Assembly (NCBI GenBank): GCA_030432295.1
Contig: JAUIHI010000007.1
Coordinates: 1-64,000, forward strand
DNA length: 64,000 nucleotides
From: Anaerolineae bacterium
GTDB taxonomy: Bacteria > Chloroflexota > Anaerolineae > Caldilineales > Caldilineaceae
Direction of reading: 5' to 3'
The stretch's first letter is position 1. Each line of letters begins with the position of its first letter. A model generated the notes under the pieces. The model had not been told where the DNA came from. It did no database searches and was given only the letters and a program-made list of their open reading frames with translations. Below are positions 799-60,881 of this stretch, piece after piece. The position numbers and the translations under genes are program-made.

Positions 799-3700
799 TC
801 ACTCTATTTCCTGCAAAATCTGTTCAAATGTCTCCACCAACCGATCCGCGTCTGCCAGGCCAAAGGGCATAGGCGGGCGAATCTTCACCACATTGTGCAG
901 AGGGCCGTCTGTGCCCAGCAGAATCCCCTCCTCCCGCATCCGGTTGGCGATGTAAGAGGCTTCCGCCGCGGCGGGTTCGAGAGTTTCCCGATCCCGCACC
1001 AATTCCACGCCCAGAAAAAGCCCGGACCCGCGCACATCACCCACCAGCGGGAAGCGATCCACAAAAGGTTGCAGTTCGGCCAGCAGATGCGCCCCCACCT
1101 GTCGGGCGTGCTCCTGTAAACCTTCCGACTGCACCACATCCAGCACGGCCAACCCCACCGCGCAGGAGACCGGATTGCCGCCGAATGTGCTGAAGAATTC
1201 CATCCCGTTGTCGAAGGAATCGGCAATCTTTCGCGTCGTCACCAACGCGGCCAGGGGGTGGCCGTTGCCAATTGGCTTGCCCAGCACCACCACATCCGGC
1301 ACGACCCTCTGCTCCTCGAAGGCGTAGAAGTGGGTTCCGATGCGCCCGTAGCCCGTCTGCACTTCGTCGGCGATGCAGATGCCACCCGCCGCCCGCACGT
1401 ATTTATACACATCAGCCAGATAGCCGGGTGGGAAAAATATCTGCCCGCCCACGCTGGGGCAGGACTCGGCAATGAAACCGCCTGGCCCCCGTCCATCCGC
1501 CTGCATCCGTTCAATCGCCGCGCTCACCCCCGCCGCATATTTCGCCCCGGCCTGGGGATCGTCGGCTTTGAATGCGCCCCGGTAGACATCCGCCACGGGC
1601 GCGGTGTAGACCCAATCGGGTGCGCCTGTTCCGCCTGGCCCGTCATGCTTGTAGGGGCTGATGTCGATCAGCCCGCTGGAATTGCCGTGATAGGCTCCTT
1701 CCAGCACAATCATTTCCCGGCGGCCTGTATGGGCGCGCACCAGACGCAGGGCCAGTTCGTTGGCTTCGCTGGCCGAGTTGAGGAAGAAGCAGACGTTCAG
1801 CGGATCGGGCAGGGTGGCGGCCAGTCGCTCGGCATAGCGGGTCAGATTGTCGTGGAGGTAGCGGGTGTTGGTGTTGAGGACGGACATCTGTTCCGTCGCT
1901 GCCCGCACCACCCGCGGGTGGCAGTGGCCCACGTGGGGCACATTATTATATGCGTCCAGATAGCGACGGCCCGTCTCGTCATATAAATATTGTCGCCAGC
2001 CCCGCACCACCTTCACCGGCTCCCGGTAGCCGATGCTCAAATTGCCGCCGATGTGGGCGCGACGTGCGGCCAGCGTCTCGGCTTTCGTCGGCTCCACCCG
2101 CGGAAAAAGTTCGGCGGGGATGCCTAGCATCAGATTCGGGTTTGGGCAGAAGGCTCTCCAGACTTCCCGCTGGCTGGCTGTGCCCACGCCGGGGAAATCC
2201 GTGCCCAGCCCCAGCAGGTCGGTCACAATCTGAAAGTGGAGATGGGGTGGCCAGCCGCCGTTTATCTCTGCGCTGCCCAGTGTGGCAAAGGGCACGCCCG
2301 CTGCGATGGCTTGGCCGATTGCCAGCCCAGTCAGTGATTCCCGGCTCAAATGGCCGTAGAGGGTGTAAAAGGGTTCGCCGTCCTTTAAATCTGGCAGGTC
2401 TTTCAAACCTGCCAGATTTTTGTCAATCCGATGGGCCAGCACAACCACCGGGCCGTAGTCCTGGGCCGCGGCGTTGTCGGCAAAGGCGTGGACCGTCCCG
2501 GCGAAGGGCGCATATACGGGTGTCCCCGCTGGTGCGAAGAGGTCGATGCCCAAGTGAATGGTGCGTTTTTCACCACCCCCTCCCAGCCTCCCCCACACTG
2601 GGGGAGGAGCAGTATCGGTGCTTTCCTCAATTGAGGAACGAGCCAAATCTGCCCCCTCCCCAATGTGGGGAGGGTTGGGGTGGGGTGAAGTGTCAAACAT
2701 TTCCGCGGTGTAGATCAGCCGGGCCTCGTCGTAGCGGCCCACACCGACGGATGCACCGTCCGCGGTCATCTGCCTATTCAGGCGCTCCCCCAATTTTTCT
2801 GGGCTGTTCTCGGCCTCGTCTCCACTGAGCAGCGGACTGCCCACGCTCAGATCGAAAACCGTATAACTTTCTGCGTCCATCACCTGAGCAAAGGGCTGCA
2901 CATCCAGCCACGCCACCAGACACTCACTGGCGGGCAGAGGCGTCAATCCGCAGGCGTGGCGAAATGTGGCTTCGGCAAAGCGGGGATGAATCGTCGCCAG
3001 CCGGGGCAGGGTGCGCTGGATGGGCTGCTGGCTGATGGCGAGATAGGCGTCGTCGGGCCGCTGGCTCTGCTGGTGCGCGGCCATACAGGCGCTGACGCAC
3101 AGACGCAGGCACATCAGCCCCCACAGCGCAGCCAGTTCGTCATCCACCAAAGCGGTGACTTCGCTATAGCCTGTCACAATTTCTGCCGCGGCAGCCAACG
3201 GACCGGCTTTGTCCAGCACCGCATAGGCCGCGGCCACAGCCAGCCCACCAACCCGATAGCTGTGGACAATATCGCCGAAATCGATCAGCCCCACCACCTG
3301 CTGGTTGCGGCTGTACAGTTTTGCCCCGCCGCTTGATTGGCCGCCCACCAGAAGATTGTAATCGTTGGCGTCGTTGTGGATCACCTGCCGGGACAAATTC
3401 GTCAGCAACGGCGCGGTCTGCTGTCGGTAGTCGGCGGTCAACTTCGCCACCAGCCCGGCCATCGACCGGTCGGCAATCAGCGGGCTGTACTTTTCCACCA
3501 CTGACAGCCCCTGGGCCAAATCCCAGTCAAAATCCCGGTGAATGGCCGGGTGGTCAAAGTCAGCTAGAGCCGTGTCCACCTGGGCAACCCGGCGGCCCAC
3601 ATCCCGCAGGAGAGCGGGCGTCTGGCGGCTCTGCTTGGCCAGGGGTGTGCCAGGCAGGAAAGTGAGCAAACGCACCCAATGGCGGCTGCTGTCTGTCCCG

Positions 3701-5642: not shown

Positions 5643-8387
5643 CTACATCGACACCCCCAGCAGTCCCCGGGTGAACTGAAAGTCGATATTCCCCACCTGC
5701 GCGGCTTTGGGCTTGTGACTCCGCCCCAGGGTGGCGGCCAGCAGATCCGCCATCTCCTGCGCCCAGCCCGCGGGGTCGTCGCCCAGGACAGCGTCCATAT
5801 CCGCAGAGTAGCGCTGCTCGACTGACTCTTCGCCGGTCACTTGCAGCACCGGGACCAGCGGATGTCCCTCCACCGGGTGGCCGCCCACGTAAGCTAGCAC
5901 TGCCTCCACCCCCGTCCCGCCCAGACCGGTGAGGGTCTCGGCCCAGTGGGAGGTAGGCGTCTCCATCACGTGAAAACCGGTCGTATCCCCTGCGTCGGCC
6001 AACGCCTGGCCGTAGGCGAGGGTGGGGAGATGGGGGCCAGGGCCGATGGTTTCGGCCAGGAATGCGGGAGAGGAGAGCAGCCCGCTGTTCTCCGGGACGA
6101 CAACCCCACCGCCACCCGCCACAATCCCTGCGGCCAGACGGCCCAATTGGATAGCCGCCACGTCGGAAAGTTCGCCGCTGTTGAGCAGGGCGATCCGCAC
6201 GTTTTCTACACCGGCTGTGATTGGTGCGGGCGCTTTCTCCCCGGCGAATTGCTCGACGAACCACTTTTCCACTTTTTCCAACACAGCGTCGATGCCCCCG
6301 TCGGACTGGATGCTAGCCCAGCCGTAGCGGCTCAGGTCGATGCCCCGCTCGGCCAGTTCGTGGCGGAAATAGTCGTTGTGGGTCTTCTCGCAGCCGTGCT
6401 CCAGCAGCAGGACGTGGGCCGCGGCCGGGTGGCGCAGATAGCCGACGAGAGAGCGCACATACGGGTCGCCCGTGCCGCCGCCGGAGGAGCCGCAGCCTTC
6501 GGTGTGGGCCAGGGCCACAAAACGGGAGATGCCCGCCTCTTTGCCCAGCCCTTTGCTGTTGAATTGGGCCGCAGCCATCTTGGCAATCTGTCCGGAGCAG
6601 AGGCTGGTGGGCAGGATGAGAGCAATGCGCTCGGCAGAGGGGCCGGAAGTAGAGCCTGCGGCTTTGGGGAAGGCGGGGTATTGGAGATTGGGTATTGGAG
6701 ATTGGAGATTGGGCAGGAGGGGCAGTGACAGTCCCTTCGGCTGGGGCATTCGGCTGATCTCTTCCACGTGGCCCGGTTCGGTCTGTCGCCAGTCCCGCCA
6801 GAGCTGGACCTGGGAATGGCCGGCCTTTTCGCCGACGGTGCGTTCGCCGGAAGCGACGCGCACGGTCAGGTCGAGGGTCTCCGCGCCCAGTTCGTCCATC
6901 GGCGTACCGTCCAGATAGCGGCCCGCGTTTACGTCCATATCCCGGCTGAGCAGTTGATAGCGCTGGGTGGTGGTAACAACTTTGATGGTGGGCACGAAAG
7001 GAAAGTTTGTGATGGAGCCGTTACCGGTGACAAAAAAGATGGCATTGCAACCGCTGGCCACCTGTCCGGCGATGCTCTCCAGATCGTTGCCGGGGCTATC
7101 CATAAAAAAATAGCCCCCCTCAGCCATGCGTTCGCCGTATTCCAGCACACCGTCCAGCCGGGTCTCCGGGTCTTTCTTGCGGGCCGCGCCGATGGATTTG
7201 AGGACGATATTGTAGAGTCCCCGGAATTTGTTGCCGCCGGAAGGGTTGCCCTCGGCGGTGTGGCCGTGCCAGCCCACCCGCTCCTGAAAACGGGCGATCA
7301 GGTCCAGGAAATGGCGGGCTGTCTCCACATTTTTGACCTTTTGCAGCACATACGGCTCCGCGCCGATCAGTTCGTCGGTCTCGGCCAGATTGGCCCCACC
7401 GCCGTAGCGCACCACTTCCCGCGCCACCCAGCCGATGAGCGGATTGCCGGAGACACCGGAGAAGGCATCCGAGCCACCACACTGCAACGCCAGCTTCAGT
7501 TCGGAGAGGGGCGTCAGGTCGCGAGAGGTGGCGTTGACATCTTCCAACCAGTCGCGCACAATCCCCTCGGCCCGGTCCAGACTGGTCTGGAAGCCGTCGG
7601 TGAGGGTGAGAAATTCGTGGGGCACCGCGTCCAGCGGATAGTCGTTGTCGGCCAGATATTCCTGCAATAGCGCGTTCGTCACCGGCTCCACGCCGTAGTC
7701 CACGCAGAGCACCGCGCCCGCATTGGGATGCACGACGAAACCGGCCAATGTGCGCAGGACGAATTCGGTGTTGTGGGGATCGTCGTGGCCGCCTTCGGTG
7801 TGGGCCACGGCCACAATCCCGTCGATATTCGGCCAGGCGTTGGCCACACCAGCCAGCCGGGCTTCCAACTGCTTCACAAAGCCACCCGTGCGCGAGGAGG
7901 TGCCGAGCAGAATAATTGTGTTGCGGGTTCCCACGCCCCGGCCACCGGCGCGGGGATAGCCCCAGAAGGCCCGTTCGTGGGCATAGGCGGGCAGCCCTTC
8001 GGCAGGCTGGAAGTTGGCCTCGTCCAGCACGTAGGGCGGCACAAAATCTTTGAAATTGGGCGTAGTGGGCAGGGCAAAGCTAATCGAACGACCGCCCAGG
8101 GCTTCCAGCATCTCTTCGTTGTGGACGTACTGGCCCGGCGCAATCCCCTGTGTGGCGATGCCGAAAGGCAGTTCCCAGGAGAGCAGATGCTCGCCGGGCG
8201 CAATGGGCGCGATGGCGAAGCGGTGGCCTTCCAGTACAGTGTAGTCGAGGGTCAGCGATTGGCCGTTGTATTCGATAACAGTACCTGCGGGCACTTTGCG
8301 GGTGACAATCGCCACATTATCGCCGGGCATAGGCAGGCGGGCGACGTTCTGAAATGGAATCGACTGGAAGGGGATGGGCTGGGTCAT
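5643..8387 (-). CDS. UxaA-family (altronate/galactarate) dehydratase, double-length
   Basis: A 914-residue protein. Residues about 10-110 form a SAF domain. Residues about 130-480 match the D-galactarate dehydratase/altronate hydrolase core, with HTEGGHDDPHNTEF near 199 and LQCGGSDAFSGVSGNP near 300. A second, diverged copy of the first core half follows at about 580-720 (AHTEGCGSSGGG near 627) with a further C-terminal domain. Ordinary UxaA is about 500 residues, so this looks like an internal duplication, with a repeat-encoded linker between the halves. It probably dehydrates a sugar acid, using iron. The MerR/Xis-like regulator gene lies just upstream. The ATG at 8387 has GAGGG upstream. 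Confidence 0.8.
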   Translation of the reverse strand: MTQPIPFQSIPFQNVARLPMPGDNVAIVTRKVPAGTVIEYNGQSLTLDYTVLEGHRFAIAPIAPGEHLLSWELPFGIATQGIAPGQYVHNEEMLEALGGRSISFALPTTPNFKDFVPPYVLDEANFQPAEGLPAYAHERAFWGYPRAGGRGVGTRNTIILLGTSSRTGGFVKQLEARLAGVANAWPNIDGIVAVAHTEGGHDDPHNTEFVLRTLAGFVVHPNAGAVLCVDYGVEPVTNALLQEYLADNDYPLDAVPHEFLTLTDGFQTSLDRAEGIVRDWLEDVNATSRDLTPLSELKLALQCGGSDAFSGVSGNPLIGWVAREVVRYGGGANLAETDELIGAEPYVLQKVKNVETARHFLDLIARFQERVGWHGHTAEGNPSGGNKFRGLYNIVLKSIGAARKKDPETRLDGVLEYGERMAEGGYFFMDSPGNDLESIAGQVASGCNAIFFVTGNGSITNFPFVPTIKVVTTTQRYQLLSRDMDVNAGRYLDGTPMDELGAETLDLTVRVASGERTVGEKAGHSQVQLWRDWRQTEPGHVEEISRMPQPKGLSLPLLPNLQSPIPNLQYPAFPKAAGSTSGPSAERIALILPTSLCSGQIAKMAAAQFNSKGLGKEAGISRFVALAHTEGCGSSGGGTGDPYVRSLVGYLRHPAAAHVLLLEHGCEKTHNDYFRHELAERGIDLSRYGWASIQSDGGIDAVLEKVEKWFVEQFAGEKAPAPITAGVENVRIALLNSGELSDVAAIQLGRLAAGIVAGGGGVVVPENSGLLSSPAFLAETIGPGPHLPTLAYGQALADAGDTTGFHVMETPTSHWAETLTGLGGTGVEAVLAYVGGHPVEGHPLVPVLQVTGEESVEQRYSADMDAVLGDDPAGWAQEMADLLAATLGRSHKPKAAQVGNIDFQFTRGLLGVSM
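6674..6718. repeat. GATTGGGTATTGG tandem-degenerate repeat inside a CDS
   Basis: Four tandem variants of the unit TATTGGAGATTGG lie in frame in the UxaA-family gene and encode an Asn/Leu/Gln/Pro linker between its two halves. The same family occurs at 13893-13922, 20189-20213 and 51393-51420. Confidence 0.85.
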
Positions 8388-8485
8388 AGGATTCCCTCTG
8401 AATTGGTGTGCGAATGGGGTTTGTCGAATATCAAAAATTGTACCACAGGGGAGAAGATCGTGCGTCTTCGCTTTGGGGAAAGTGC

Positions 8486-9133: not shown

Positions 9134-9213
9134 CAAAATCTATGCCCTTTCGCAAATGGGAACTATCAAACGGGTGTAATTCATATTTGGGGTGAAGTGG
9201 AATTGTCTGTGCC

Positions 9214-9340
9214 GCCCGGTGCTAAAGACACCGGGCTACCGAGTTACGCCCCCTAAACGGGGCTTTCGCAGAAACGGACAGACGGTTTCTGAGCCGGATT
9301 TATCCGGCATCGCCCTGTAGCTCCGGGTCTTTAGCCCGGT
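9214..9340. repeat. Cluster of small palindromes in the 9134-9454 intergenic region
   Basis: Four or five short hairpins follow one another: GCCCGGTG/CACCGGGC, GCCCC/GGGGC, GAAAC/GTTTC, GCCGGATTTATCCGGC, and a CCGGG/CCCGG pair. The 321-nt gap between the regulator gene and priA holds no recognisable gene, only this cluster. Confidence 0.7.
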
Positions 9341-9454
9341 GCGGTCGTCGCAAACCCACCCCTGCCCCGAAATTGAATTACACCCCTATCAACCCGCATT
9401 ATACCAGCAGAGAAGGTGGAGAGTGAAGACGGTTCCGCATTCCTACTTCATAAT

Positions 9455-12154
9455 TCAGAGCACCGATGTCGGGTCCACATCCACACGCCAGCCAAAGGGA
9501 ATGTCCAGCCCGCGCAGAAGTCGAGACGGGTCTGGGCCGCGCACGAGGATTTGCCAGCGGTAGAAGCTGCGGTGGCGGGCGAAGAAGGCGGGGACTGGGC
9601 CGATAATATCGAAACTTTCGCCGGGCAGGGCCACTTGACCAATGCGGGCGCGCAGGGCCGCAGCCATCTCAGCGCAACGGCTCTGCACAGTCTCCAGCTT
9701 CTTGTGCCAAAAGACCAGCCGGGCCAGCCGTCCTGCGGGGGGATAGCCCTGCTCCCGACGGAAGCTCATCTCCCGTGCGTAGAAAGCCGCGTAGTCGTGT
9801 TCTGCCGCGGCCTGCACAGCGTAGTGCTCCGGTTTGTAGGTCTGGAAGATGACCCGCCCGCCTCGTGCGCTGCGCCCTGCCCGGCCCGCCACCTGTGTCA
9901 GCAGTTGGAAGGTGCGCTCCGGCGCGCGGAAATCGGGCAGATAGAGTCCCACATCCGCGGAGACGACGCCCACAAAAGTCACCAGCGGCAGGTCCAGCCC
10001 TTTGGCGATCATCTGTGTGCCCACCAGCACATCCGCTTCGTGGGCCGCAAACCGGGCCAGAATCTCCTCGTGGCTGCCCTTGCGCCCAGTGGTGTCCGCG
10101 TCCCAGCGCAGGATGCGGGCGCGGGGGGAGATTTCCTGCACGGCCTCTTCAATGCGCTCGGTGCCGCTGCCAAAGAATTTGATGCGTTTGCTCTCGCACT
10201 CCGGGCAGACCGTCGGGATGGGATAGCGGGCGTTGCAGTGATGACAGACCAGCACGCTGACCCGCTCGTGATAGGTCAGGGGCACTTCACAGCGAGGGCA
10301 CTCCTCCACGTGGCCGCAGTCCCGGCAGAGGACGAATGTATTTGTGCCTCGCCGATTCAGGTAAAGAATCGCCTGCTCCTGCGCGTCCAGCGTGGCGTGG
10401 AGTTCGCTCTGCATACTGCGGCTGAAAATGCTGCGGTTGTTGGCGCGCAGTTCCTGGCGCATATCCACAATTTCCACAGGCGGCAGTTCGGCGTAGAGGG
10501 GCGAGGGGCGAGGGGCGAATTGCGAATTGCAAATTGCGCCATCGGGCGTCTTGTCATCTTGTCCTCCCTTCATCCTGTCATCTTCGCCGTGCCCCATCAC
10601 CCGGCGGGGAAGTTCGAGCAGGTGCAGGCCGCCAGATAAGCTCTCTGTGTAGGATTCCAGGGACGGGGTGGCGCTGCCCAGAATCAGACTGCTGCCGGTC
10701 AGTTCAGCCAACTGACGGGCGACTGTGCGGGCGTCGTAGAAGACTTTGAAACTGCCCCACACCTCCGCGTCCTGCTTATAGGAGGATTCGTGCTCCTCGT
10801 CCAGAATAATCAGTCCCAGCCGGGGCAAGGGCGCAAAGAGCGCGCTGCGGGGGCCGACCACCACATCGATCTCCCCGTCACGCACCTGCCGCCAGACGTC
10901 GTATCGTTCGCCCGCACTCAGCCCCGAATGGACGACCGTCACCCGGTCCGGGAAGCGGCCTGCAAAGCGGGCGACTGTCTGAGGAGTCAGCGCAATTTCG
11001 GGGACGAGCACAATCGCCTGGCGGTTGCGGTCCAGGGTTTCGGCGATGGCGTGGAGATAGATTTCCGTTTTGCCGCTGCCGGTGACGCCGTGTAGCAGAA
11101 AGCGGGCCGGTGTCAATTCCCCTTCGGTGGCGAAGCACGCGCTGCGAATGGTCTGCCAGACGCCGCTCTGCTGTTCGGTCAGGCGCAGGGGCCAGGTGCG
11201 GGGATAGATGCGTCCGGCCAACGGGTCACGGAAGCGCACCTTTTCGGCCATCTGCACCAGTCCGGCTTCGTGTAGTTCGCGCAGCACAGACAGATTTGTG
11301 TCCACCCGCGCGTAGAGTTCGCTCTTCCAGAGGGGACCGTCGGCGTCGGCCAGCGTATCCAGCACAATCCGATATTTTTCCACCCCGCGCAGGGCCAGCA
11401 GCGCGTCTTCGGCTTCCGACACGGGCAAGGCCAGTCTGGCCATTTCATCTTCCAGAACAATCAGCCCATCGCTTTCCAGTCGTTTGAGGGTGGCGGTTGT
11501 GCGCAGATCGCAGCGAATTTGTAGTTCGGCGATAGAAAGTGTCTGGTCTGGCGCGGCCAGCAGCGTCTCCAATGCCTGCACCTGCTTGCTCTGTCTGCCC
11601 AGTTGAAAAAGGCTCTGGCGAATCTCCTGGCGACGGATGCGCAGGCTGATGACCTCCTCCCGTTTGGAGCGGATGCCCGCGTCGCCCTCGTCCTTTTTCA
11701 TCAGGCCGGGGGGCAGGAAAAGCTTTACCGCTTCGGAGAGAGGGGCCACGTAATAATCGGCGATCCAAAAGGAGAGGGCGATCTGGGCCGGGGTGAGGAC
11801 CGGTTGCGGTCGGGCCAGCCGTTTGATCGGCTTCGTCGCTACCGGCGCGCCATCCGCCAGCTTCACAACAATGCCCTGCAACGTCTGGCGTCCAAAGGGA
11901 ACCCAGACCAGATGGCCGGGCTGGACGCTGCCTAGCAGTTCCGGTGGCAGGTGGTAGTGGAAGGTCTGCAAGGCAGCCGAGCTGTCGTCGCTGGCCTCGG
12001 CTTCGCCCTCAAAGCCGGGCAGGTCTGCCGGGGGCGGCGGGGTCTGTCCCTTGCCAAAGGAGCGGCGAATGGGCACATTGACGATCACTTCCACATAACC
12101 CAAACTGGCTGTGAGATTTGACTGATTGTTCAGCCCAGATGTTCTACTGTTCAT
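9455..12154 (-). CDS. priA: Primosomal protein N-prime, replication-restart helicase PriA
   Basis: An 899-residue superfamily 2 helicase that reloads the replisome at stalled forks. Seen: Walker A GVTGSGKTEIY near residue 361, DEEH box (ILDEEHESS) near 449, and a cysteine-rich zinc region CRDCGHVEECPRCE...CHHCNARY...CPECES around 606-655. The ATG at 12154 is chosen over upstream in-frame codons. An unusual insertion of about 30 residues after RRVMGHGEDD is encoded by repeats at 10499-10590 and lies before the conserved PPVEIVDMRQE segment, probably in a surface loop. trmFO is divergent upstream. Confidence 0.95.
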   Translation of the reverse strand: MNSRTSGLNNQSNLTASLGYVEVIVNVPIRRSFGKGQTPPPPADLPGFEGEAEASDDSSAALQTFHYHLPPELLGSVQPGHLVWVPFGRQTLQGIVVKLADGAPVATKPIKRLARPQPVLTPAQIALSFWIADYYVAPLSEAVKLFLPPGLMKKDEGDAGIRSKREEVISLRIRRQEIRQSLFQLGRQSKQVQALETLLAAPDQTLSIAELQIRCDLRTTATLKRLESDGLIVLEDEMARLALPVSEAEDALLALRGVEKYRIVLDTLADADGPLWKSELYARVDTNLSVLRELHEAGLVQMAEKVRFRDPLAGRIYPRTWPLRLTEQQSGVWQTIRSACFATEGELTPARFLLHGVTGSGKTEIYLHAIAETLDRNRQAIVLVPEIALTPQTVARFAGRFPDRVTVVHSGLSAGERYDVWRQVRDGEIDVVVGPRSALFAPLPRLGLIILDEEHESSYKQDAEVWGSFKVFYDARTVARQLAELTGSSLILGSATPSLESYTESLSGGLHLLELPRRVMGHGEDDRMKGGQDDKTPDGAICNSQFAPRPSPLYAELPPVEIVDMRQELRANNRSIFSRSMQSELHATLDAQEQAILYLNRRGTNTFVLCRDCGHVEECPRCEVPLTYHERVSVLVCHHCNARYPIPTVCPECESKRIKFFGSGTERIEEAVQEISPRARILRWDADTTGRKGSHEEILARFAAHEADVLVGTQMIAKGLDLPLVTFVGVVSADVGLYLPDFRAPERTFQLLTQVAGRAGRSARGGRVIFQTYKPEHYAVQAAAEHDYAAFYAREMSFRREQGYPPAGRLARLVFWHKKLETVQSRCAEMAAALRARIGQVALPGESFDIIGPVPAFFARHRSFYRWQILVRGPDPSRLLRGLDIPFGWRVDVDPTSVL
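10499..10590. repeat. Repeat block inside priA (AATTGCG and GACAAGATGA families)
   Basis: Tandem GGGGCGA units, then GAATTGCGAATTGCAAATTGC, then GTCATCTTGTCC units, all in frame. They encode the extra loop in PriA. The same unit types recur in the YfhO fusion at 19490-19512 and 20487-20571, and near 41206. Confidence 0.85.
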
Positions 12155-13693: not shown

Positions 13694-13935
13694 GAATGAG
13701 TTCACTGCAAAAAGCCATTTGAACCACAAAGAATACAAAGGGCACAGAGATTTACAGGAGAAATATCTGCGTTTATCAGTGTTCATCAGTGGCTGGCAGA
13801 CCTTTTTGCAGTGGCCTGAGAATAGAACGCGGACAACGGATGAACTGATTACTGTTCACCCTTCACTTCGACAGCCCCGCCAACACCACCACCCAATATC
13901 TACTATCCAATACCCCATACCCCCTGCAAGGAGAA
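13680..13935. repeat. Repeat-filled intergenic region with 18-bp flanking direct repeats
   Basis: The sequence TTGCAGTGGCCTGAGAAT occurs at 13680-13697 (overlapping the trmFO stop) and again at 13806-13823. Between them lie CACAAAG-type and TATCAGTGTTCATCAGTGG-type units; after them come CCAATATCTACTATCCAATACC units. No gene is seen here. The last part carries the AGGAG site of malate synthase. Confidence 0.85.
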
Positions 13936-17755: not shown

Positions 17756-18610
17756 ATGCAACAGCCGTTCAGCCCACAAACCCGACTTCCCAGCGAGTGG
17801 CGACAGACCCCACTGACAGTTGTGATCCCCACCTACAACGAAGCGGAAAACCTGGCCGGAATCAGCGAAGCCATCCTGGGATTGGGTCTGTCTGGCCTGC
17901 GCCTGCTGATTGTAGACGACAATTCGCCCGACGGCACAGGCCAGATGGCCGACGATCTGGCGGCCCGCTTCAACCGGAACGGCCAAGCGCGGATGAGCGT
18001 TCTGCATCGCACAGGTAAGGGGGGGCTGGGCACGGCTTACGTGGCCGGAATGAGCCAGGCCCTGGCCGAAGGGGCTGAGTTTGTGGTGCAGATGGACGCC
18101 GACTTTTCCCACTCACCCGAATACATCCCGGCGATGCTGGGGGTGATCCTCTCCACCGGCGCGGATGTGGTCATTGGCAGCCGCTACGTGCCCGGCGGTT
18201 CACTGGACGAGGGCTGGAGTTGGTGGCGGCGCTTTTTGAGCTGGTGGGCCAATCTCTACAGCCGCACGCTGCTCGGCATCCGGGTGCGGGATATGACCGC
18301 CGGTTTCAAACTCTGGCGCAGTTCGGCCCTGCAGGAGATCGGCCTGAAAAACATCCGCAGCAACGGCTACATTTTTCAGGTGGAGATGGCCTATCTGTGC
18401 GAACGGCTGGGTTTTCGCATCATCGAAATTCCCATCCACTTTGAAGATCGGCGCATCGGCCAGAGCAAAATGGACATCCCCGTCAAGCTGGAATCGGCCT
18501 GGCGGGTGTGGGAACTGGCGTGGCGGCACAGAAAGCGGGAACGAGTCGGGCGAACGAACGCGCAAATAGTTTCTACAGATGTGCTGGTAGATGATGGGAT
18601 GCTGAGATGA
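17756..18610 (+). CDS. Polyprenol-phosphate sugar transferase (dolichol-phosphate mannosyltransferase-like GT2)
   Basis: A 284-residue family 2 glycosyltransferase. Seen: [13 protein letters not shown] at the N-terminus, [10 protein letters not shown] near residue 56, and [12 protein letters not shown] near 112 (metal-binding DxD). [10 protein letters not shown] and [10 protein letters not shown] further on are typical of DPM1-type enzymes that load mannose or another hexose onto undecaprenyl phosphate. There is no C-terminal membrane domain, so it is the short soluble form. The lipid-linked sugar could feed the GT-C-like YfhO protein encoded next. ATG 17756 is preferred over a GTG at 17744. 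Confidence 0.88.
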
Positions 18611-18649
18611 TGGAAAAGGCATACCCCATCATCTCAGCATCCCATCATC
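18590..18649. repeat. 24-bp perfect inverted repeat spanning a stop codon
   Basis: The arm at 18590-18613, containing GATGATGGGATGCTGAGATG, is exactly complementary to 18626-18649. The stop codon of the sugar-transferase gene falls inside the left arm. It has no T-run, so it is more likely a repeat or mRNA-stabilising hairpin than a terminator. Confidence 0.8.
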
Positions 18650-18668
18650 TTTCCCGGCATTGAAATTT

Positions 18669-23096
<4,428 letters not shown>

Positions 23097-40564: not shown

Positions 40565-41392
40565 TTAGTCTGCCGCTCTTTTTCGCCCTATCCACTGCCC
40601 CAGCACCAGCCCCGCAAAGAGCGGCAACACACGCATCCGCCGCCAGCGCCAGGGCTGGATGACCAGCCGGTGCAGCCATTCCAGCCCCAGCCGTTGCATC
40701 CACAGGGGCGCGCGTTTGGTGACACCAGCCACAAAGTCGAAGGCTCCCCCCACGCCCAAGGCCACAGCCACAGGCAATTCGTGCCGGTGTCTGTCGATCC
40801 AAAAGTCCTGGCGAGGATGGCCGAAAGCCACAAAGAGTACATCTGCCTGGGCCGCGGCCAGCCGTTGCTGAATCTCCGGCCAGCCTTCATCCGCGGGCGA
40901 ACCGCTGAATGTGCCCGCCACCTGCAATCCCGGATAGCGCGCGGTGAGCCGCGCCGCGGTCTGCTCCGCCACCCCCGGCCCCGCGCCCAGCAGAAAGACC
41001 CGCCAGCCTTCCCCCGCGGCCCGCTCACAGATGCGGTAGATACCGTCCGATCCGGTCACCCGCTCGGCGAAGGGCTGGCCCAGCAGCCGCCCCGCCCAGA
41101 GAATCCCTACCCCATCCGGCGCGCATACCTCCGCCCGGTTCAGCACCGCGGCAAAGGCTGGGTCCCGGCGGGCTTCCATTACGAATTCCGGGTTGACGGT
41201 GCAGAGTTGGCGGGTTGCGAGTTGGGAATTGCGAGTTGCGCGGCGTTCCTCAATCCAATGGGCGATTTGGTCGAGGGTTTGGGCGAAATCGACCCGGTGG
41301 ATGCGCACGCCCAGAATCTCCACAGAGGAGAATTCAAAGCTCTCTTCCTCTGCGCCTCTGCGTCTCTGCGTCTCTGCGTTAAGTTTTTTCAC
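40565..41392 (-). CDS. WecG/TagA/CpsF-family glycosyltransferase
   Basis: A 275-residue GT26 enzyme. Seen: LCTVNPEFVMEARRDPAFA, APDGVGILWAGRLLG, VFLLGAGPGVAEQTA, FVAFGHPRQDFWIDRH and VGGAFDFVAGVTKRAP. These enzymes add N-acetylmannosaminuronate or N-acetylmannosamine to a lipid-linked GlcNAc. The first 15 residues (NAETQRRRGAEEE) and RRATRNSQLATRQ near residue 50 are encoded by repeats. The start overlaps the upstream glycosyltransferase stop by 4 nt (ATGA), so translation is likely coupled. Confidence 0.92.
   Translation of the reverse strand: MKKLNAETQRRRGAEEESFEFSSVEILGVRIHRVDFAQTLDQIAHWIEERRATRNSQLATRQLCTVNPEFVMEARRDPAFAAVLNRAEVCAPDGVGILWAGRLLGQPFAERVTGSDGIYRICERAAGEGWRVFLLGAGPGVAEQTAARLTARYPGLQVAGTFSGSPADEGWPEIQQRLAAAQADVLFVAFGHPRQDFWIDRHRHELPVAVALGVGGAFDFVAGVTKRAPLWMQRLGLEWLHRLVIQPWRWRRMRVLPLFAGLVLGQWIGRKRAAD
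41206..41246. repeat. GAGTTGGGAATTGCGAGTTGCG repeats inside the TagA-type gene
   Basis: Tandem units GCGGGTTGCGAGTTGG and GAATTGCGAGTTGCG in frame, encoding RRATRNSQLATRQ. Same family as priA 10517-10538. Confidence 0.8.
41340..41385. repeat. CTCTGCGTCTCTGCG repeats at the start of the TagA-type gene
   Basis: Four tandem variants of CTCTGCGC/GTCTCTGCG. On the coding strand these read ACGCAGAG, as at 19415-19440. They encode the N-terminal NAETQRRRGAEEE. Confidence 0.85.
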
Positions 41393-42603
41393 TTCTTCTC
41401 CGCTGCATTCAGCAGAACGGCCAGCGTCTCCCGCGCCGCCTTCTCCCAGGAGAAGCGCTTGACATTCTCGTAGCCTTTGGCGATCAATTCCTGGCGCAGG
41501 GACTCGTCCCGACTCAGCCGTAGCATCGCGTCCGCAATCGCCTCTGTGTCGTTGGGGTCCACCAGCAGCGCGGCGTCGCCCGCCACCTCTGGCAGAGAAG
41601 AATTATTGCTCGTCATCACAGCCACCCCCATCTGTTGGGCCTCCAACACCGGCAGGCCAAAGCCCTCGTAGAGGGACGGAAAAGCAAAAAAGAGCGCGTT
41701 CTGAAAAAGTGCAGGCAGGTCTGCGTCGTCCACATAACCGGGAAAGTGAATGCGCTCGCCCAACCCCAGGGCAGCGACCTGGGCTGGAAACGGCTCGCCC
41801 AACCAGCCCAGCCCCCCGGCAATCACCAAATCCCAGTCGATTTTTTCCCGTTCGATCAGCCGCGCATAGGCGTCGATCAGTCGGGCCAAATTCTTGCGGG
41901 GCTGGAGCGTTCCGACGTAGAGAGCGTATTTTACAAACTGAGTTTCTTGCAGAAACTCAGTTTGTGGGAACGCGCCCGCCGCCTCATAAATCACCCGCAG
42001 CTTTTCTTCCGGAGTCCCGTAGAAACGCATCAGATCATCCGCCGTCGCCTGGCTGGGGGCGATGACCCGGCGGGCTACCCAACTGCTCCAACGGGTGGAA
42101 AGTTCCAGATAGAGCCGCTGGCTGGCCGTATGTGCGGCGGGAAAGTGTCGATAGCCCACGTCGTGGAGTGTCACCACTGACGGGGACAGCAGACCCGGCG
42201 GCAAAAAGGGAATGACGTGGGAGGGCACAAAGAGTACATCCGGTCTGTGCCGGGCGACTTCCCAGGCCAGGGCTGTGTGGGTCCACAGGCGGCGACCGGG
42301 CAGGACCCGCACTTCCACTTTCGGATCATTCCAAAAAGCCTGCGCTGCCCCAAAAATAGCCACTGATGAACGCTGATGAACACTGATAAAATCTGCGGAA
42401 TCTGCGTTCCTATTTTCTCCGGTATCAGTGCCCCCAAATATACCGTCTGGCGTGACTGCCGGTGCTTCGGGCACGTACAGCCGAAAGCGATGGCCCGCGG
42501 CTTCGGGCAGTGCCAAGAGATGACGGATGATTTCGAGGGAATAGCGCTCCGTCCCCGTGCGCCGGGCACGCAGGGCGCGGGAGGCATCGATGCCGATAAT
42601 CAT
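41389..42603 (-). CDS. GT4-family glycosyltransferase
   Basis: A 404-residue retaining glycosyltransferase of the GT-B fold. Seen: SPSVVTLHDVGYRHFPAAHT, IAPSQATADDLMRFY, ALYVGTLQPRKNLARLIDAY and SLYEGFGLPVLEAQQMGVAV with the EGFGLPxLE sugar-nucleotide site. ATG at 42603 overlaps the end of the Sua5 gene by 4 nt. Two repeat blocks are translated: one in the N-terminal domain (42358-42410) and a perfect palindrome in the linker before ALYVGTLQPRKN (41933-41965). It likely adds hexose to a surface glycan. Confidence 0.9.
   Translation of the reverse strand: MIIGIDASRALRARRTGTERYSLEIIRHLLALPEAAGHRFRLYVPEAPAVTPDGIFGGTDTGENRNADSADFISVHQRSSVAIFGAAQAFWNDPKVEVRVLPGRRLWTHTALAWEVARHRPDVLFVPSHVIPFLPPGLLSPSVVTLHDVGYRHFPAAHTASQRLYLELSTRWSSWVARRVIAPSQATADDLMRFYGTPEEKLRVIYEAAGAFPQTEFLQETQFVKYALYVGTLQPRKNLARLIDAYARLIEREKIDWDLVIAGGLGWLGEPFPAQVAALGLGERIHFPGYVDDADLPALFQNALFFAFPSLYEGFGLPVLEAQQMGVAVMTSNNSSLPEVAGDAALLVDPNDTEAIADAMLRLSRDESLRQELIAKGYENVKRFSWEKAARETLAVLLNAAEKK
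41933..41965. repeat. Perfect 14-bp inverted repeat inside the GT4 gene
   Basis: ACAAACTGAGTTTC and its exact complement around a 5-nt loop, in frame, encoding QTEFLQETQFVKY between the two GT-B domains. Confidence 0.85.
42358..42410. repeat. CACTGATGAACACTGATAAA repeat block inside the GT4 gene
   Basis: Tandem CACTGATGAACGCTGATG units then ATAAAATCTGCGGAATCTGCG, in frame. It matches blocks at 13770-13796 (complement), 53021-53150 and 57255-57300. Confidence 0.85.
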
Positions 42604-57312: not shown

Positions 57313-58362
57313 CTACCCACCCCAAATTGCTTCCAAGGCGTCGGCCCAGTCGGTGGCGCGCACGGCCAGTATCCGCTGGTTGTGTAGATAGCTGCGGGCA
57401 TTGGCCGCCAGTTCCCGGCGCAGGTCAGGCTGTTCGATGAGTGAGCGCAGGGCAGCCACCCAACTGGCCGTGTCGTTAGCCGTCAGTAGCCCGGTCTCCC
57501 CGTGACGCACGCTATCGGCATAGACCGGCAGATCGCTGTAGATGCCCGGCGCGCCCAACGCGGCGTAGTCCAAAAATTTAATGTCGGACTTGGCCCGGTT
57601 GAAGGGCGTGTCGCACAGGGGAGCCAGGGCGATGTCCCAGCGTACATTGCCGGTGAACCAGGGCAGGAATTGGGGATATTCTGGGCTTGGCGGCGTCAGT
57701 CGGGTGACGGGAAAGGGCAGTTGGTTGAGTTGGACCAACGTTTGCGCGTCCGCCACGCCGCCGATAATCTGCAATTCCAGGGGCACAGAGACCGAAGCAG
57801 CGACTTCACTCAGCGCGGGCAAAAGCAGCCGCAGGTCGTCGTCGTGGGTGAGAGTTCCCATATAGCCCAGAACCATCCGCTCGCCGTCCGTCCCCGACTG
57901 AGACGCGCCCCGGACAACCAGCCTCTCATCCAGCGCGTTGCCCACCACCCGTACCTGTGCATTCTGGCTGACATAGCGGGCGCGCAGGGCGGTGGTGGAG
58001 ACGATCACCCCATCAGCCTCCCGCAGGAAAGTTGCCACAATGTCCCGTTTGGCCTGAGCAGCCGATGTATCAGCGGGCAACGCCAGCAGGTCGTCGTCGA
58101 TCTGATAGACGAGCTTCGCCCCCTGCTGACACACATCTGCGGCCAGCCGCCTGGCCATTTCCGGCGTACAATCGGGCCGCCAGTGGCGATCCACCAGCAC
58201 GATTTCGGCTTCCTGGCCGTAATAGACGGGCGAAGGAGTGACGTAGAAGCGCCCGGCGCTGGCTGGATGGGTCAGGGGCTGCATCAGACGAATGTAGGCG
58301 CTGCCGTGGGGCAGACCGATTGGACTGTATTCGTAGAGAACGAGAACCCGGGGAACAATCAC
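57313..58362 (-). CDS. Glycosyltransferase (GT4-like)
   Basis: A 349-residue protein with a GT-B-like layout: VLVLYEYSPIGLPHGSAYIR at the N-terminus, KLVYQIDDDLLALPADTS, GVIVSTTALRARYV, MVLGYMGTLTHDDDLRLLLP and SDIKFLDYAALGAPGIYSDL. The last segment takes the place of the EGFGLPxLE nucleotide-sugar loop. The GTG start overlaps the upstream gene by 4 nt (GTGA). It is last in a four-gene surface-glycan cluster. Confidence 0.82.
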   Translation of the reverse strand: MIVPRVLVLYEYSPIGLPHGSAYIRLMQPLTHPASAGRFYVTPSPVYYGQEAEIVLVDRHWRPDCTPEMARRLAADVCQQGAKLVYQIDDDLLALPADTSAAQAKRDIVATFLREADGVIVSTTALRARYVSQNAQVRVVGNALDERLVVRGASQSGTDGERMVLGYMGTLTHDDDLRLLLPALSEVAASVSVPLELQIIGGVADAQTLVQLNQLPFPVTRLTPPSPEYPQFLPWFTGNVRWDIALAPLCDTPFNRAKSDIKFLDYAALGAPGIYSDLPVYADSVRHGETGLLTANDTASWVAALRSLIEQPDLRRELAANARSYLHNQRILAVRATDWADALEAIWGG

Positions 58363-60881
58363 AGCGCGCCCCCATTCGCTGGTGGATCAAAGAGGACGGT
58401 CAGGATATTGAACGCTGCCCGCTCTGGAAAGAAGGCGCAGGCATCCCGGATGGCATTGGCCCGCAGCCGGGCACGCAGATGCTCGTCGTCTACCAGCGAG
58501 CGCAGGGCACGCCAGCACGCCTCGGCAGAGGATGTGTCCACCACCAGCGCGTTTTCGCCGTCGCGGGCAAAGCTCCCCGCGCCCCCCTTCTGCGGGACGA
58601 TAACCGCGGCTCCACAGGCCATCGCCTCCAGTGCGGTCAGCCCCATAGCCTGGTAGGTGGAGAAATCCACAAAAATATCCGTCGCGCCCAGCAATGCGGC
58701 CACTCGCTCCGTCTCCAGCATCCCGGCCAGTTGCCAGTCAAAATCCTGGGGCAGATCCGCAAAGCCGGGGTCGGCGGGAGAGACGCCAAAAAGGGTGATG
58801 GCGACCCGCTCGCCGTAGTGGTGAGAAAGTCGGCGCAGGATTTCCATCGTCAGCCGGGGGCCACGGCGGGGCGAACTGGGCCGAATCATCGCTGTGATGC
58901 GAATGGGAGCGGAGGAAGAATAGAACACGGATGACGCGGCGGTGTCCTGAGCCTGTCGAAGGGATTGGGCAGATAGACGCGGATTTTCTTCTTTGTGTCT
59001 CTGTGTCTTTGTGGTTAAAGGACGGAAGCGGTCGATGTCTACCGAGGGACCGACGACTGCACAATCCACGCCAGTGTGAGCCAGAACTTCCTGCCGGTTC
59101 CACTCGGTTTTGGTGAAGCAGCGCAGAGTGGGCCGGGCGCTGTAGCTGGCCGCGGCCTGGCGCTGCTCGTCGCTGCCGTCTGCGAAAAAGTGAGCCTCAA
59201 AATCCTGCACGTAATAGCCAAGCGCTGGGCCAGAAGTAGAGTGCGCGGGCAGCCATTCCACGCTTTCGTGCCAGGTGGCGACCATCCCATCGAAGCCCAG
59301 GCCCAGCCGCCAGGCATCCTCCGGGCTGCCGAAATGGATAGGCAGCCGGTTGACGGGATAGGCTGCGGCGAAAAGCTGGCGATTCTTGGCCAGATTGAAG
59401 AGATGGACCTCCACACCCATCCCGGCCATTGCCTCGGCCTCGGTCAGAACGACGTTTGCGCCGCCGCCGGGCGCATCCACAGGCAACAGAAAGAGCAGCC
59501 GCTTTCCAGAAAAGTACTGCCGCCCCACATCCACCAGCCCAAAACGTTCGGCCAGCACAGCCGCCCGCGCCCGGATACCGAGGAGTGCCGGTCCATCGCG
59601 CATGGCATCTTCAGCCGCGGCGATGGATTCCCGGCCATAGCGTTCGGTCAAAATCTGACCAGCCCGCTCGCTCAGTTCCCGGCGGCGAGTGTGGGAATAG
59701 CTGCGGGATTGGGCGTGGAAGACGTAGGCGTCGTCGGCCAGGGCCAGCCGCCAGCCCGCAGCCCGGGCGCGCAGGCAATAGTCGTTCTCCTCGCCGTAGC
59801 CCGCGCCAAAAGCGTCCTCATCAAAATAGCCGATGGCATCGATGACCTCCCTGCGGATAAGCAGAGAGAAACCGTTGAGGAAGGGCATCTCCGGGTAGAG
59901 CCGGGCAGCGCTTTCGGCCAGCGCCCCGGCCCAGCCATCGATCTCCCAACCGGCGGGCAGGGGATTTTCGGCCCAGTCGCCCCCTGAACTCAAGGCGGGG
60001 ATGGACTGATAGGAGGCGGTGTTTGAGAGGGGACCGACCAACCCAATCGCCGGGTCGGAATCGGCAGAGGCGATGAGCCTGTCCAGCCAGCCGGGGCTGA
60101 CGATGGTGTCGCTGTTGAGGAGGAGGACGAAGGAAGCGGTGCTGTGGCGCAGTCCCCGGTTGGCGGCGAAGGTATAGCCGGTAGCTTCATCCCGACGCAA
60201 AAGGGTTGTGTGGGGCTGTTGGCGGGCAAAGTTGGCCAGAAAATCCCGGGTAGGCAGGTCGCTACCGTCGTCCACCAGAAGCAGCCCGTAGGGTTGGGCT
60301 GTGTGACGCAGCACAGATTCCAGACAGCGCTGCACATCTTCCAGCGCGTTGTGGATGCAGACGACAATATCCACCGCTTCGGTGTGGGGTGTTACGGGCG
60401 GGCGGATAGGCGGCAGGGGAATTTCTATAATCTCGTTGCGATAGGGCCGACGGGGGCCGATTCGTCGGGCCAAGGATTTCCAGCGCCAACGGGCCTCCCC
60501 GTGCAGGTGAACGAGCAGCCCACCCGTGCCTCGCTGATTGGCTATGCGAATCCAGCCAGCCGCCATAGCCAGAAGCCCTTCCCTCCGAGAACCGGGCGGG
60601 ATTGTGCGGGCGCGCAAGCGCTGCAACAGACGCAAAAGCGCGTAGCCGGGGCTCTGGCGCAGACTCTCCCATTCGGCCAGTTCGGCGTGATATTTGGCTT
60701 CCCAGGCCGCTTTCTCCTGGCGGGCGGCCAACATCTCCTTTTCCAGGGCCAGGGCCAGATGGGTTAGCTGGGCCAGACGGGTGTCCTGTTGGCGGGCAGC
60801 GGTACGCAGGGCGTCGATCTCCTGGCAGGCGCGGTCCAGGTGCGGGTCAGGCGTGGCGGGAGGCGGAGAGGGTGCAGTCAC
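58359..60881 (-). CDS. Two-domain glycosyltransferase (GT2 plus GT4)
   Basis: An 840-residue protein with a coiled-coil-like N-terminus (QEIDALRTAARQQDTRLAQL). A GT2 domain follows at about 165-420 (VDIVVCIHNALEDVQRCLES, LLLNSDTIVSPGWLDRL, GYGEENDYCLRARAAGW). A GT4-type domain fills about 500-840 (LPVDAPGGGANVVLTEAEAM, YQAMGLTALEAMACGAAVI). Two linked transferases suggest successive sugar additions, as in polymerising O-antigen or glycoprotein enzymes. A repeat block (58941-59028) is translated between the GT4 subdomains. GTG at 60881 is chosen because it lies just after the upstream stop. Confidence 0.87.
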   Translation of the reverse strand: MTAPSPPPATPDPHLDRACQEIDALRTAARQQDTRLAQLTHLALALEKEMLAARQEKAAWEAKYHAELAEWESLRQSPGYALLRLLQRLRARTIPPGSRREGLLAMAAGWIRIANQRGTGGLLVHLHGEARWRWKSLARRIGPRRPYRNEIIEIPLPPIRPPVTPHTEAVDIVVCIHNALEDVQRCLESVLRHTAQPYGLLLVDDGSDLPTRDFLANFARQQPHTTLLRRDEATGYTFAANRGLRHSTASFVLLLNSDTIVSPGWLDRLIASADSDPAIGLVGPLSNTASYQSIPALSSGGDWAENPLPAGWEIDGWAGALAESAARLYPEMPFLNGFSLLIRREVIDAIGYFDEDAFGAGYGEENDYCLRARAAGWRLALADDAYVFHAQSRSYSHTRRRELSERAGQILTERYGRESIAAAEDAMRDGPALLGIRARAAVLAERFGLVDVGRQYFSGKRLLFLLPVDAPGGGANVVLTEAEAMAGMGVEVHLFNLAKNRQLFAAAYPVNRLPIHFGSPEDAWRLGLGFDGMVATWHESVEWLPAHSTSGPALGYYVQDFEAHFFADGSDEQRQAAASYSARPTLRCFTKTEWNRQEVLAHTGVDCAVVGPSVDIDRFRPLTTKTQRHKEENPRLSAQSLRQAQDTAASSVFYSSSAPIRITAMIRPSSPRRGPRLTMEILRRLSHHYGERVAITLFGVSPADPGFADLPQDFDWQLAGMLETERVAALLGATDIFVDFSTYQAMGLTALEAMACGAAVIVPQKGGAGSFARDGENALVVDTSSAEACWRALRSLVDDEHLRARLRANAIRDACAFFPERAAFNILTVLFDPPANGGAL
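58941..59028. repeat. Repeat block inside the two-domain glycosyltransferase gene
   Basis: GGTGTCCTGAGCCTGTCGAA, AGATAGACGCGGATTTTC and CTTTGTGTCTCTGTGTCTTT units, in frame, encode TTKTQRHKEENPRLSAQSLR. It combines three families found separately elsewhere. Confidence 0.85.

What the first reader, a model, noticed from the sequence alone, without database searches (positions are those of the whole stretch)
2387..59028. Many families of short degenerate repeats invade both intergenic DNA and reading frames, mostly in frame
At least a dozen unit types recur: GATTGGGTATTGG, GAATTGCGAATTGC, GACGGCGGACGGC, GACAAGATGAC, ACGCAGAG/CACAAAG, CACTGATGAACACTGAT, GTGTCGAGTGTCG, CTGAGCCTGTCGAA, ACCTGCCAG palindromes, GGGGAGG palindromes, TTCCGTGTCTTCCGT, CACGCAGCACGCAG and CGTGAAACGTGA. 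Copies occur inside about ten genes (kinase/phospholyase fusion, UxaA-type, priA, YfhO fusion, TIR-CHAT, GH2, GT4, TagA-type, two-domain glycosyltransferase, 3-prime end of 56618-57277). They keep the frame open and add linkers in places that look like loops. Different families are often joined end to end. No transposase is linked to them. This suggests an active process that inserts or expands tiny units, tolerated where it preserves frame.
Basis: partly seen in the sequence, partly recalled or inferred. Interest (0 to 1): 0.78.

Follow-up and report, generated by a model that had tools for sequence, protein, structure and literature searches.

The report
Fast-changing short repeats inside bacterial genes
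A bacterium related to Caldilineaceae carries many tiny tandem repeats, often folded as hairpins, between and inside its genes; relatives often keep repeats at the same spots but with altered or different repeat words, mostly without shifting the reading frame.

Summary
The repeats are real and far above chance. In 1.247 Mb of this genome there are 79 arrays of period 7 and 26 of period 8, against 0 and 0 in a Markov control; units recur (391 near-identical period-7 pairs, shuffled maximum 86); 58 of 128 arrays have an inverted partner within 130 bp, against 27 of 640 control trials. Arm order is fixed within families in 50 of 52 hairpins.

At orthologous sites of congeners (flanks about 84% identical) arrays often persist but change quickly. 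Of 56 pairs with arrays on both sides, 62% keep a related unit (random 19%) and 30% still align (random 1.5%). In the coding class, 52 of 56 length differences are multiples of three. The PriA loop is the clearest case.

Frame preservation is best read as selection. Turnover by slippage, template switching and copying from elsewhere is inferred, not shown. Some genomes with the octamer family lack Y1 transposase or reverse transcriptase matches. The decamer recurs across bacterial phyla and in archaea; the one heptamer tested is mostly lineage-local. Verdict: a new variant of known short-repeat classes.

The parts
6676..6712 (-). Array in the altronate/galactarate-dehydratase-like ORF (5643-9155): ATTGGAG units, encodes PNLQSPIPNLQYP
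   Evidence: Four congeners have 22-25 bp here, G004 and G005 (and partly G001) with GTGATTGG-type units; differences 12 or 15 bp.
10496..10584 (-). Composite array in priA (9455-12238): GAGGGGC, GCGAATT and CTTGTCAT blocks in a loop
   Evidence: the best-scoring solved PriA chain aligns up to query residue 547 and again from 611.
18589..18650 (.). Intergenic foldback hairpin of GATGATGG units; in the same spacer G004 has a GCGTTCAA hairpin, G005 GTAGTGC, G006 GTATTGC, and G001 a related GATGATGG array
19419..19504 (+). Array site 1 in the YfhO/flippase ORF (18660-23096): ACGCAGAG, GACGGCG and CTCGCCC blocks
   Evidence: length 86 against 71, 98, 107 and 182 in congeners, differences all multiples of 3.
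19874..19974 (+). Array site 2 in the same ORF: GGTGTCG, GACGGCG and CACGCAG blocks
   Evidence: G004 and G006 have a GTGGCAG hairpin around GTCGTCC units here; 5 of 6 length differences multiples of 3.
20183..20253 (+). Array site 3 in the same ORF: GGGTATT and AATATCT blocks; 71 bp also in the four congeners compared
20485..20557 (+). Array site 4 in the same ORF: ATGACAAG / GTCATCCG hairpin; G004 and G006 have GACGGCG-type and GCAATTC arrays instead
20700..20730 (+). Site 5 in the same ORF: a single CCCTCGC in the window; about four CCCCTCG units in G005, other arrays in G004 and G006
41204..41240 (-). Array in the 40565-41392 gene: GAGTTGC units; congeners carry TGGTGCG (G004), GATGCGT (G005), GCGTATT (G001) or GATATTG (G006) arrays
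   Evidence: length differences multiples of 3 in 3 of 5 pairs called coding and 0 of 2 called non-coding; G004 is out of frame.
41347..41379 (-). Array near the N terminus of the same gene: CTCTGCGT units
   Evidence: differences 6, 9, 12, 18 and 24 bp.
42361..42400 (-). CACTGATGAA decamer array in the GT4 glycosyltransferase (41389-43455)
   Evidence: the G005 difference is a multiple of 3 with the limits, not with those.
58975..59013 (-). CACAAAGA octamer array (CTTTGTGT on +) in the GT2/GT4 ORF (58359-61274), ending GTGGTTAA
25552..25576 (-). TTCCGTGTC array ending GTGGTTAA in ORF 23294-26524
   Evidence: one congener (G004) has a 76 bp version.
13695..13814 (.). MITE-like element (about 120 bp, ends CTCCACTGCAAAAAG / CTTTTTGCAGTGGA) that carries AACCACAAAG and CACTGAT units inside
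   Evidence: copies at 82-97% identity in this genome; 15 aligned.

Best explanation
This is a genome-wide population of degenerate tandem arrays (unit 7 or 8 bp, sometimes 9-10). Nearly half have an inverted partner of the same unit family close by, with the same arm first in nearly every case of a family. They live in permissive DNA: spacers, and protein linkers or loops. Shown: site persistence with fast change of content; related units at many orthologous sites and unrelated ones at others; gain, loss or replacement of unit blocks; near-complete frame preservation in genes; recurrence of families; fixed arm order. Inferred: replication slippage expands or homogenises units, template switching within and between self-complementary arrays copies blocks and arms, and some spread is passive carriage in MITE-like elements and by horizontal transfer. 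Selection removes out-of-frame or stop-containing versions from genes. The evidence does not call for a dedicated enzyme, though an unknown one is not excluded.
For: Period excess: 79 and 26 arrays of period 7 and 8 against 0 and 0. Recurrent units: 391 period-7 pairs within one mismatch against mean 71.2, maximum 86. Inverted partners: 58 of 128 against 27 of 640. Arm order: in the six families with more than one same-family inverted neighbour, 53 of 53 in one order per family; 50 of 52 by a second method. Orthologous sites: 62% related unit against 19% random, yet only 30% alignable at 84% flank identity. Piecewise change: PriA and YfhO sites share some blocks and differ in others. Unit-number change: one CCCTCGC in the window, about four units in G005, direction unknown. 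Frame: 52 of 56 differences. No shared enzyme: G000, G433, G312 and G186 have no RVT_1 match; G433 (20 octamer matches) and G130 (4) have no Y1_Tnp match. MITE carriage.
Against: Slippage alone does not explain why families recur at unlinked sites, nor why a 25-base decamer pattern recurs across bacterial phyla and in archaea. Fixed arm order is what one expects of a moving element with ends. No same-species pair was available, so no single event was caught, and many changes could be older multi-step ones. The enzyme tests rest on one octamer family. The coding class requires an open frame through the array on one side, which favours intact cases.
Confidence: 0.6

Rival explanations
1. The hairpins are true mobile foldback elements: a trans-acting enzyme recognises the array arms as terminal inverted repeats and copies the whole hairpin to new sites, including tolerated sites in genes.
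For: Fixed arm order. Octamer arrays begin with AAC in 14 of 28 cases in 464 kb of this genome, and decamers in the 47 loci with AAC in 40 of 109. Hairpins with AACCAC...GTGGTT ends stand in an Opitutales MAG, Isosphaeraceae, Kiritimatiellae, a PVC-group MAG and a viral contig. Patchy, high-copy distribution: 26 of 400 genomes of the phylum, with 88, 29, 25 and 20 matches in genera of four families.
Against: Y1 transposase or RVT_1 matches are absent from some octamer-bearing genomes and present in genomes without the octamer. The AAC start is not seen in G005 octamers (1 of 21), and decamers here start with AGC in 6 of 16. No constant target duplication was noticed at the sites I looked at by eye (not a systematic search). 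No clear GTAG/CGTC tag enrichment. Units drift within sites.
Confidence: 0.25
2. Ordinary local microsatellite births: each array arises where it stands by polymerase slippage with a step near 7-8 bp; family recurrence is coincidence or composition bias.
For: A site that differs only in unit number. Heptamer arrays in general are known to be over-represented in many bacteria (passages of PMC4692102). The heptamer tested across the phylum is in 10 of 400 genomes and its reversed control, by my reading of the table, in 5.
Against: 391 recurrent unit pairs against a shuffled maximum of 86; only 6 of 79 period-7 arrays fall in one-member families. Inverted partners and arm order. Decamer shared across phyla and with archaea.
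Confidence: 0.1
3. The arrays are functional sequence kept by selection: terminators, RNA-stability hairpins or G-quadruplex signals between genes, and adaptive variable linkers inside proteins.
For: Sites persist across species. In this genome G exceeds C in the 5' arm in 69 of 85 hairpins, less than C in 11. Array-bearing PriA loops are seen here and in four congeners.
Against: Content is not conserved, and arrays are depleted in coding DNA. Some sites have no array in some congeners (27 of 79 coding pairs; that class includes ordinary periodic coding stretches). The G-rich 5' arm is not general: in the loci of other phyla G exceeds C in 11 and falls below in 27 of 45 hairpins.
Confidence: 0.05

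Closest known systems
Heptameric tandem repeats of cyanobacteria and others (STRR, recalled; GGGNATC in Xanthomonas and Nostoc, PMC4692102, passages; TAACTGA in Beggiatoaceae, PMC4679880, abstract and one section)
   Same: Unit of 7 bp, dispersed, mostly between genes. PMC4692102 reports that most repeats lie between the same genes in two Xanthomonas species with extensive length and sequence variation. [quoted passage not shown]
   Different: Here many unit families coexist in one genome, inverted pairs of fixed arm order are common, and arrays sit in the middle of conserved genes with frame mostly kept while units change between species.
Small dispersed repeats (SDR) of Nostoc (Elhai et al. 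2008; recalled, the paper is not held; mentioned in a passage of PMC2884548)
   Same: Tiny, dispersed, possibly mobile; found with heptamer arrays and in minitransposons (recalled).
   Different: SDRs are fixed 21-27 nt sequences (recalled); these are arrays of variable unit and length.
Rickettsia palindromic elements and CGTC/GTAG REPs inside genes (PMC3733652, abstract and passages)
   Same: Palindromic repeats inside ORFs, in-frame in Rickettsia, suggested to be neutral where in linkers or loops; replication and repair genes among the targets; [quoted passage not shown]
   Different: REPs are short stem-loops with a tag at one end; no clear tag enrichment here. Arms here are tandem arrays.
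MITEs
   Same: Two MITE-like elements are in the window, and one carries repeat units.
   Different: The arrays themselves vary in unit and length, and no constant target duplication was noticed.

Membership tests
Short tandem repeat arrays of heptamer type (STRR-like) | Tandem units of about 7 bp in excess of chance | tested here: met
   79 against 0 in the Markov control, 1.247 Mb.
Short tandem repeat arrays of heptamer type (STRR-like) | Dispersed, mainly intergenic | tested here: inconclusive
   By density yes (0.348 per kb non-coding, 0.072 coding); by count no: 29 coding, 22 non-coding, 7 at edges in 464 kb.
REP (GTAG- or CGTC-tagged) | Tetranucleotide tag at one end of the stem-loop | tested here: not met
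   87 hairpin placements: GTAG 12, CTAC 5, CGTC 14, GACG 16, against 7, 7, 17 and 9 in one set of random places; the GACGGCG family itself contains GACG.
REP mobilised by RAYT | Y1 tyrosine transposase present in genomes rich in the repeat | tested here: not met
   G433 (20 octamer matches) and G130 (4) have none, 94% and 100% complete. G000 itself has 7 matches. Octamer family only.
MITE | Constant terminal inverted repeats and target duplication | tested here: inconclusive
   The separate elements at 9172-9386 and 13695-13814 have constant ends. For the arrays no target duplication was noticed by eye, without a systematic search.
SDR of Nostoc | Fixed 21-27 nt sequence families with common secondary structure (recalled) | tested here: inconclusive
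   Units and lengths vary; the paper could not be read.
Retroelement-driven repeats | Reverse transcriptase (PF00078) in the genome | tested here: not met
   No match in G000, G433, G312 or G186.
Rickettsia palindromic elements | Palindromic repeat inserted in frame in genes encoding functional proteins | tested here: inconclusive
   Mostly in frame and in part palindromic; the RPE sequences were not compared and protein function was not tested.

The most novel reading that the evidence does not exclude
The hairpins with fixed arm order, and above all the AACCAC...GTGGTT octamer/decamer foldbacks, are among the smallest mobile DNA: elements with no gene and no constant core, whose arms are arrays of a few-base word. 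They spread between bacterial phyla, archaea and phages by an unknown route that needs neither Y1 transposase nor PF00078 reverse transcriptase, and settle in spacers and protein linkers, where they act as a standing source of new linker peptides.
Probability: 0.22. Interest if true: 0.88.

Novelty: new variant of a known kind. Interest (0 to 1): 0.64.

Why it matters
It gives a measurable case of protein linkers being rewritten quickly by repeat turnover while the gene mostly stays in frame. It turns an old puzzle, where heptamer repeats come from and how they spread, into testable predictions: fixed arm order, site persistence with changing content, a decamer foldback shared across phyla and with archaea. 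It also warns that loops made of such arrays can mislead protein alignments and annotation.

Tried and rejected
Reverse transcriptase or RAYT as the necessary engine: not supported for the octamer family. REP tags: no clear enrichment. A phage vehicle as the main route: exact patterns are rare in viral contigs, 3, 3, 6 and 8 stretches in four scans of the 2.9 million-contig collection, although clean hairpins exist there. Co-occurrence of one heptamer family with the octamer family across the phylum: none of the 9 other heptamer-positive genomes has the octamer. Register of units across block boundaries: lag-7 match rate 0.313 in flanks of period-7 arrays against 0.254-0.289 at other lags, too weak to use. 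Preferred neighbours among families: at most 2 occurrences of any pair in 27, no conclusion. The fixed-word family scan has a high background (430 blocks against about 176 in the reversed control), so only its arm order is used. Clean empty sites with target duplications for the arrays: none found by eye. The further G005 contigs gave no shared array site; all matches lie in contigs held before, in 65 kb of alignable DNA. The non-coding class (12 of 22 multiples of three) contains sites that look coding on inspection (41223, 41362, 35750, 37504), so it is not used as a clean control; two sites that look intergenic (18601, 51419) give 3 of 10. One of 144 pairs was lost at a contig edge, and 143 pairs were cut to 102 by dropping reciprocal duplicates.
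Full report
What was checked. The window is the first 64,000 bases of contig C49 of a 6.72 Mb genome in 61 contigs. Six congeners are held. The one with the highest PriA identity (92%), G005, is the genome of a record titled Caldilineaceae bacterium isolate ACE_CHL8: the PriA match in the genome reached through locus L115 has the same contig number, coordinates and score as in G005. So the window comes from an unnamed member of that genus; that Caldilineaceae belong to the Chloroflexota is recalled.

The repeats exceed chance. In the window, arrays with a lag-match score of 11 or more number 16, against 0 in one fifth-order Markov shuffle. In 1.247 Mb of the same genome the counts by period, observed against control, are 79/0 for period 7, 26/0 for 8, 13/3 for 9 and 10/1 for 10; multiples such as 14 and 15 are also raised. 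The pattern CACTGATGAACACTGAT with at most one mismatch occurs 95 times in the genome and its reversed control 0 times.

Families recur, so not every array is born alone. Among the 79 period-7 arrays, 391 pairs of units agree within one mismatch in some rotation or strand; letter-shuffled units give a mean of 71.2 and a maximum of 86; 6 of the 79 fall in one-member families. Period 8 gives 36 against a maximum of 7, period 10 gives 12 against 0. The largest families are AATACCC, ACGGCGG, AAAAGGC and AATTCGC among heptamers, and ACGCAGAG and AACCAATC among octamers.

Nearly half have an inverted partner. Of 128 arrays of period 7-10, 58 match the reverse complement of their own flanks within 130 bp, against 27 of 640 trials with flanks of other arrays. 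The order of arms is fixed within families. In a word-based scan 58 same-family inverted neighbours were seen; in the six families seen more than once, 53 of 53 have one order per family, for example 28 of 28 with GGGRATT first and 12 of 12 with GACGGCG first. By a second method 50 of 52 hairpins from the 15 families seen at least twice share their family's order, and G exceeds C in the 5' arm in 69 of 85 hairpins and falls below it in 11. The G-rich first arm is not general: in the loci of other phyla it is 11 above and 27 below of 45. At one spacer where the family differs between species, both arms differ: 18535-18694 has a GATGATGG hairpin here, a GCGTTCAA hairpin in G004, and hairpins of GTAGTGC and GTATTGC type in G005 and G006.

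Where they stand. With a simple hexamer-based gene caller, 29 arrays of period 7-10 in 464 kb are coding, 22 non-coding and 7 at edges; density is 0.072 per kb coding and 0.348 non-coding. In 372 kb of G005 the figures are 19, 14 and 4, and 0.065 against 0.172.

Orthologous sites. Stretches of six congeners were fetched around the window's genes, besides two contigs of G005. Of 107 array clusters with full flanks, 51 had at least one orthologous site. After dropping reciprocal duplicates there are 102 pairs, 79 called coding from an open frame and third-position bias. In the coding class the lengths differ in 56, and 52 of the 56 differences are multiples of three; the other side has a different array in 34, the same in 18 and no array in 27. 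'Different' here is by alignment and includes drifted units; the unit test below separates the two. By site: 17 coding sites, 13 with length polymorphism, all differences multiples of three in 10. Two sites that look intergenic give 3 of 10. The pairs are not independent, since one site contributes up to ten, and the coding call needs an open frame through the array in one genome.

How different are they? In 56 pairs with arrays on both sides, 62% share a unit within two mismatches in seven, against 19% of random pairs, so sites are partly inherited. Only 30% still align at 60% of the self score (random 1.5%), although the flanks are on average 84% identical. So change is fast, with both drift of a unit and true replacement. 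The PriA loop shows both. G000 carries GATGACAAG, GCAATTCGC and CCCCTCG blocks, G005 the first two and one CCCCTC; G001 has GATGACAAG, a GCAATACGC variant and CCCCAATC blocks; G006 and G004 have GGGGACT or GGGGATT/CCCCAATC hairpins; G014 of another genus has CAATCCAC octamers; G020 is ambiguous; 11 other genomes of the family and the 4 class-level genomes that I aligned have loops that look plain, mostly shorter. The best-scoring solved PriA chain aligns up to query residue 547 and again from 611, so the array fills a linker between the first helicase lobe and the zinc region (domain names). At the fifth site of the YfhO-like gene the window has one CCCTCGC where G005 has about four units; which state is older is not known.

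Beyond the genus. An exact pattern with 25 fixed bases, CACTGATNAACACTGATNAACACTGAT, was found in 47 stretches of a collection of 84,980 species genomes. Their titles name Verrucomicrobia, Isosphaeraceae and Phycisphaerae, Geothrix, Arenimonas, Alcaligenaceae, Hydrogenedens, Armatimonadetes, Lentisphaeria, Kiritimatiellae, a Lachnospiraceae MAG, Aquidulcis and Caldilineaceae, and archaea (Methanomassiliicoccaceae, Methanophagales, Methanosarcinales). Thirteen of the 47 stretches come from one genome, so this is not 47 independent cases. Several read AACCACTGATGAACACTGAT - loop - ATCAGTGTTCATCAGTGGTT or close to it. The octamer pattern AACCACNAAGNCACNAAG occurs in 26 of 400 genomes of the phylum, with one reversed-control match by my reading of the table; the copies are concentrated in scattered genera: 88 here, 29 in G270, 25 in G338, 20 in G433. 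The AAC start holds for 14 of 28 octamer arrays here but for 1 of 21 in G005. The heptamer TTGCGRRTTGCGRRTTGCG is in 10 of 400 genomes and its reversed control in 5, and no other genome has both families. So this heptamer family looks mostly lineage-local, while the octamer and decamer families travel or recur widely. This is a result against a single simple story.

Machinery. No tested engine is needed by all. Y1 transposase matches occur in 32 of 42 chosen genomes but not in octamer-bearing G433 and G130; reverse transcriptase matches occur in 15 of 22 but not in G000, G433, G312 or G186. The genomes were chosen by me by their octamer counts, and other transposase families were not tested. 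Two MITE-like elements were recognised by aligning copies: a 215 bp one at 9172-9386 with duplications of about 9 bp by eye, and one of about 120 bp at 13695-13814 that carries AACCACAAAG and CACTGAT units inside. So passive carriage is one route of spread.

Known things. Heptamer arrays are long known. PMC4692102 (passages) and PMC4679880 (abstract and one section) describe single-unit families in other phyla, in the first case between the same genes with varying content, in the second also in some ORFs. PMC3733652 (abstract and passages) describes REPs inside genes, suggests linkers or loops, notes replication and repair genes, and cites Rickettsia elements inserted in frame. PMC2884548 (passages and one section) describes short variable segments in three bacterial species, many inside ORFs. 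PMC6649704 (abstract) describes inverted repeats in mitochondrial genes. The Nostoc SDR paper is recalled, not read. None of six exact unit strings is in the held papers. I did not see in print the combination of many families, fixed arm order and site persistence with unit change inside genes; that rests on the listings only, most of which were capped.

Verdict. The frame-keeping is best read as selection on a fast turnover process. The mechanism of turnover and spread is inferred, not shown. Filed as a new variant of known short-repeat classes.

Noticed in passing
window 9172-9386: A 215 bp MITE-like element with ends GGGTGTAATTCA...TGAATTACACCC and duplications of about 9 bp by eye; 26 further places in this genome are listed; in G005 7 bp stand in its place.
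   Followed up: partly
window 799-4005; 5643-9155; 18660-23096: Unusual domain combinations by Pfam: APH kinase + peptidase M23 + class-III aminotransferase; SAF and galactarate/altronate dehydratase domains in a 1170 aa ORF; YfhO-like + polysaccharide biosynthesis in one 1478 aa ORF.
   Followed up: no
window 2387-2421: A near-perfect hairpin AAATCTGGCAGGT...ACCTGCCAGATTT inside the ORF 799-4005; may be a separate palindrome class.
   Followed up: no
L184 (IMG/VR contig, 5574 bp): Four AACCACAAAG arms, some clearly paired as hairpins, in one 5.6 kb viral contig.
   Followed up: no
L191, L193: AT-rich contigs held as viral that carry nearly perfect GGGGATT/AATCCCC palindromic arrays; they may be organelle-like rather than viral.
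   Followed up: no
L058 about 1161-1240 (G004): The congener's copy of the 40565-41392 gene has about eleven TGGTGCG-type units and a length that is not a multiple of three relative to others: possibly a broken or phase-variable gene.
   Followed up: no
window 20183-20253: Array site 3 keeps exactly 71 bp here and in the four congeners compared although the units changed, unlike the other sites of the same gene.
   Followed up: no
L085 and other loci of Candidatus Aquidulcis FI88_2_58_12: One genome holds many near-identical copies of a longer element (catagcgcagcatagccgcaaccaaatcttttgga + CACTGAT array + ATCTGTGT array), which looks like a recently spread composite.
   Followed up: no
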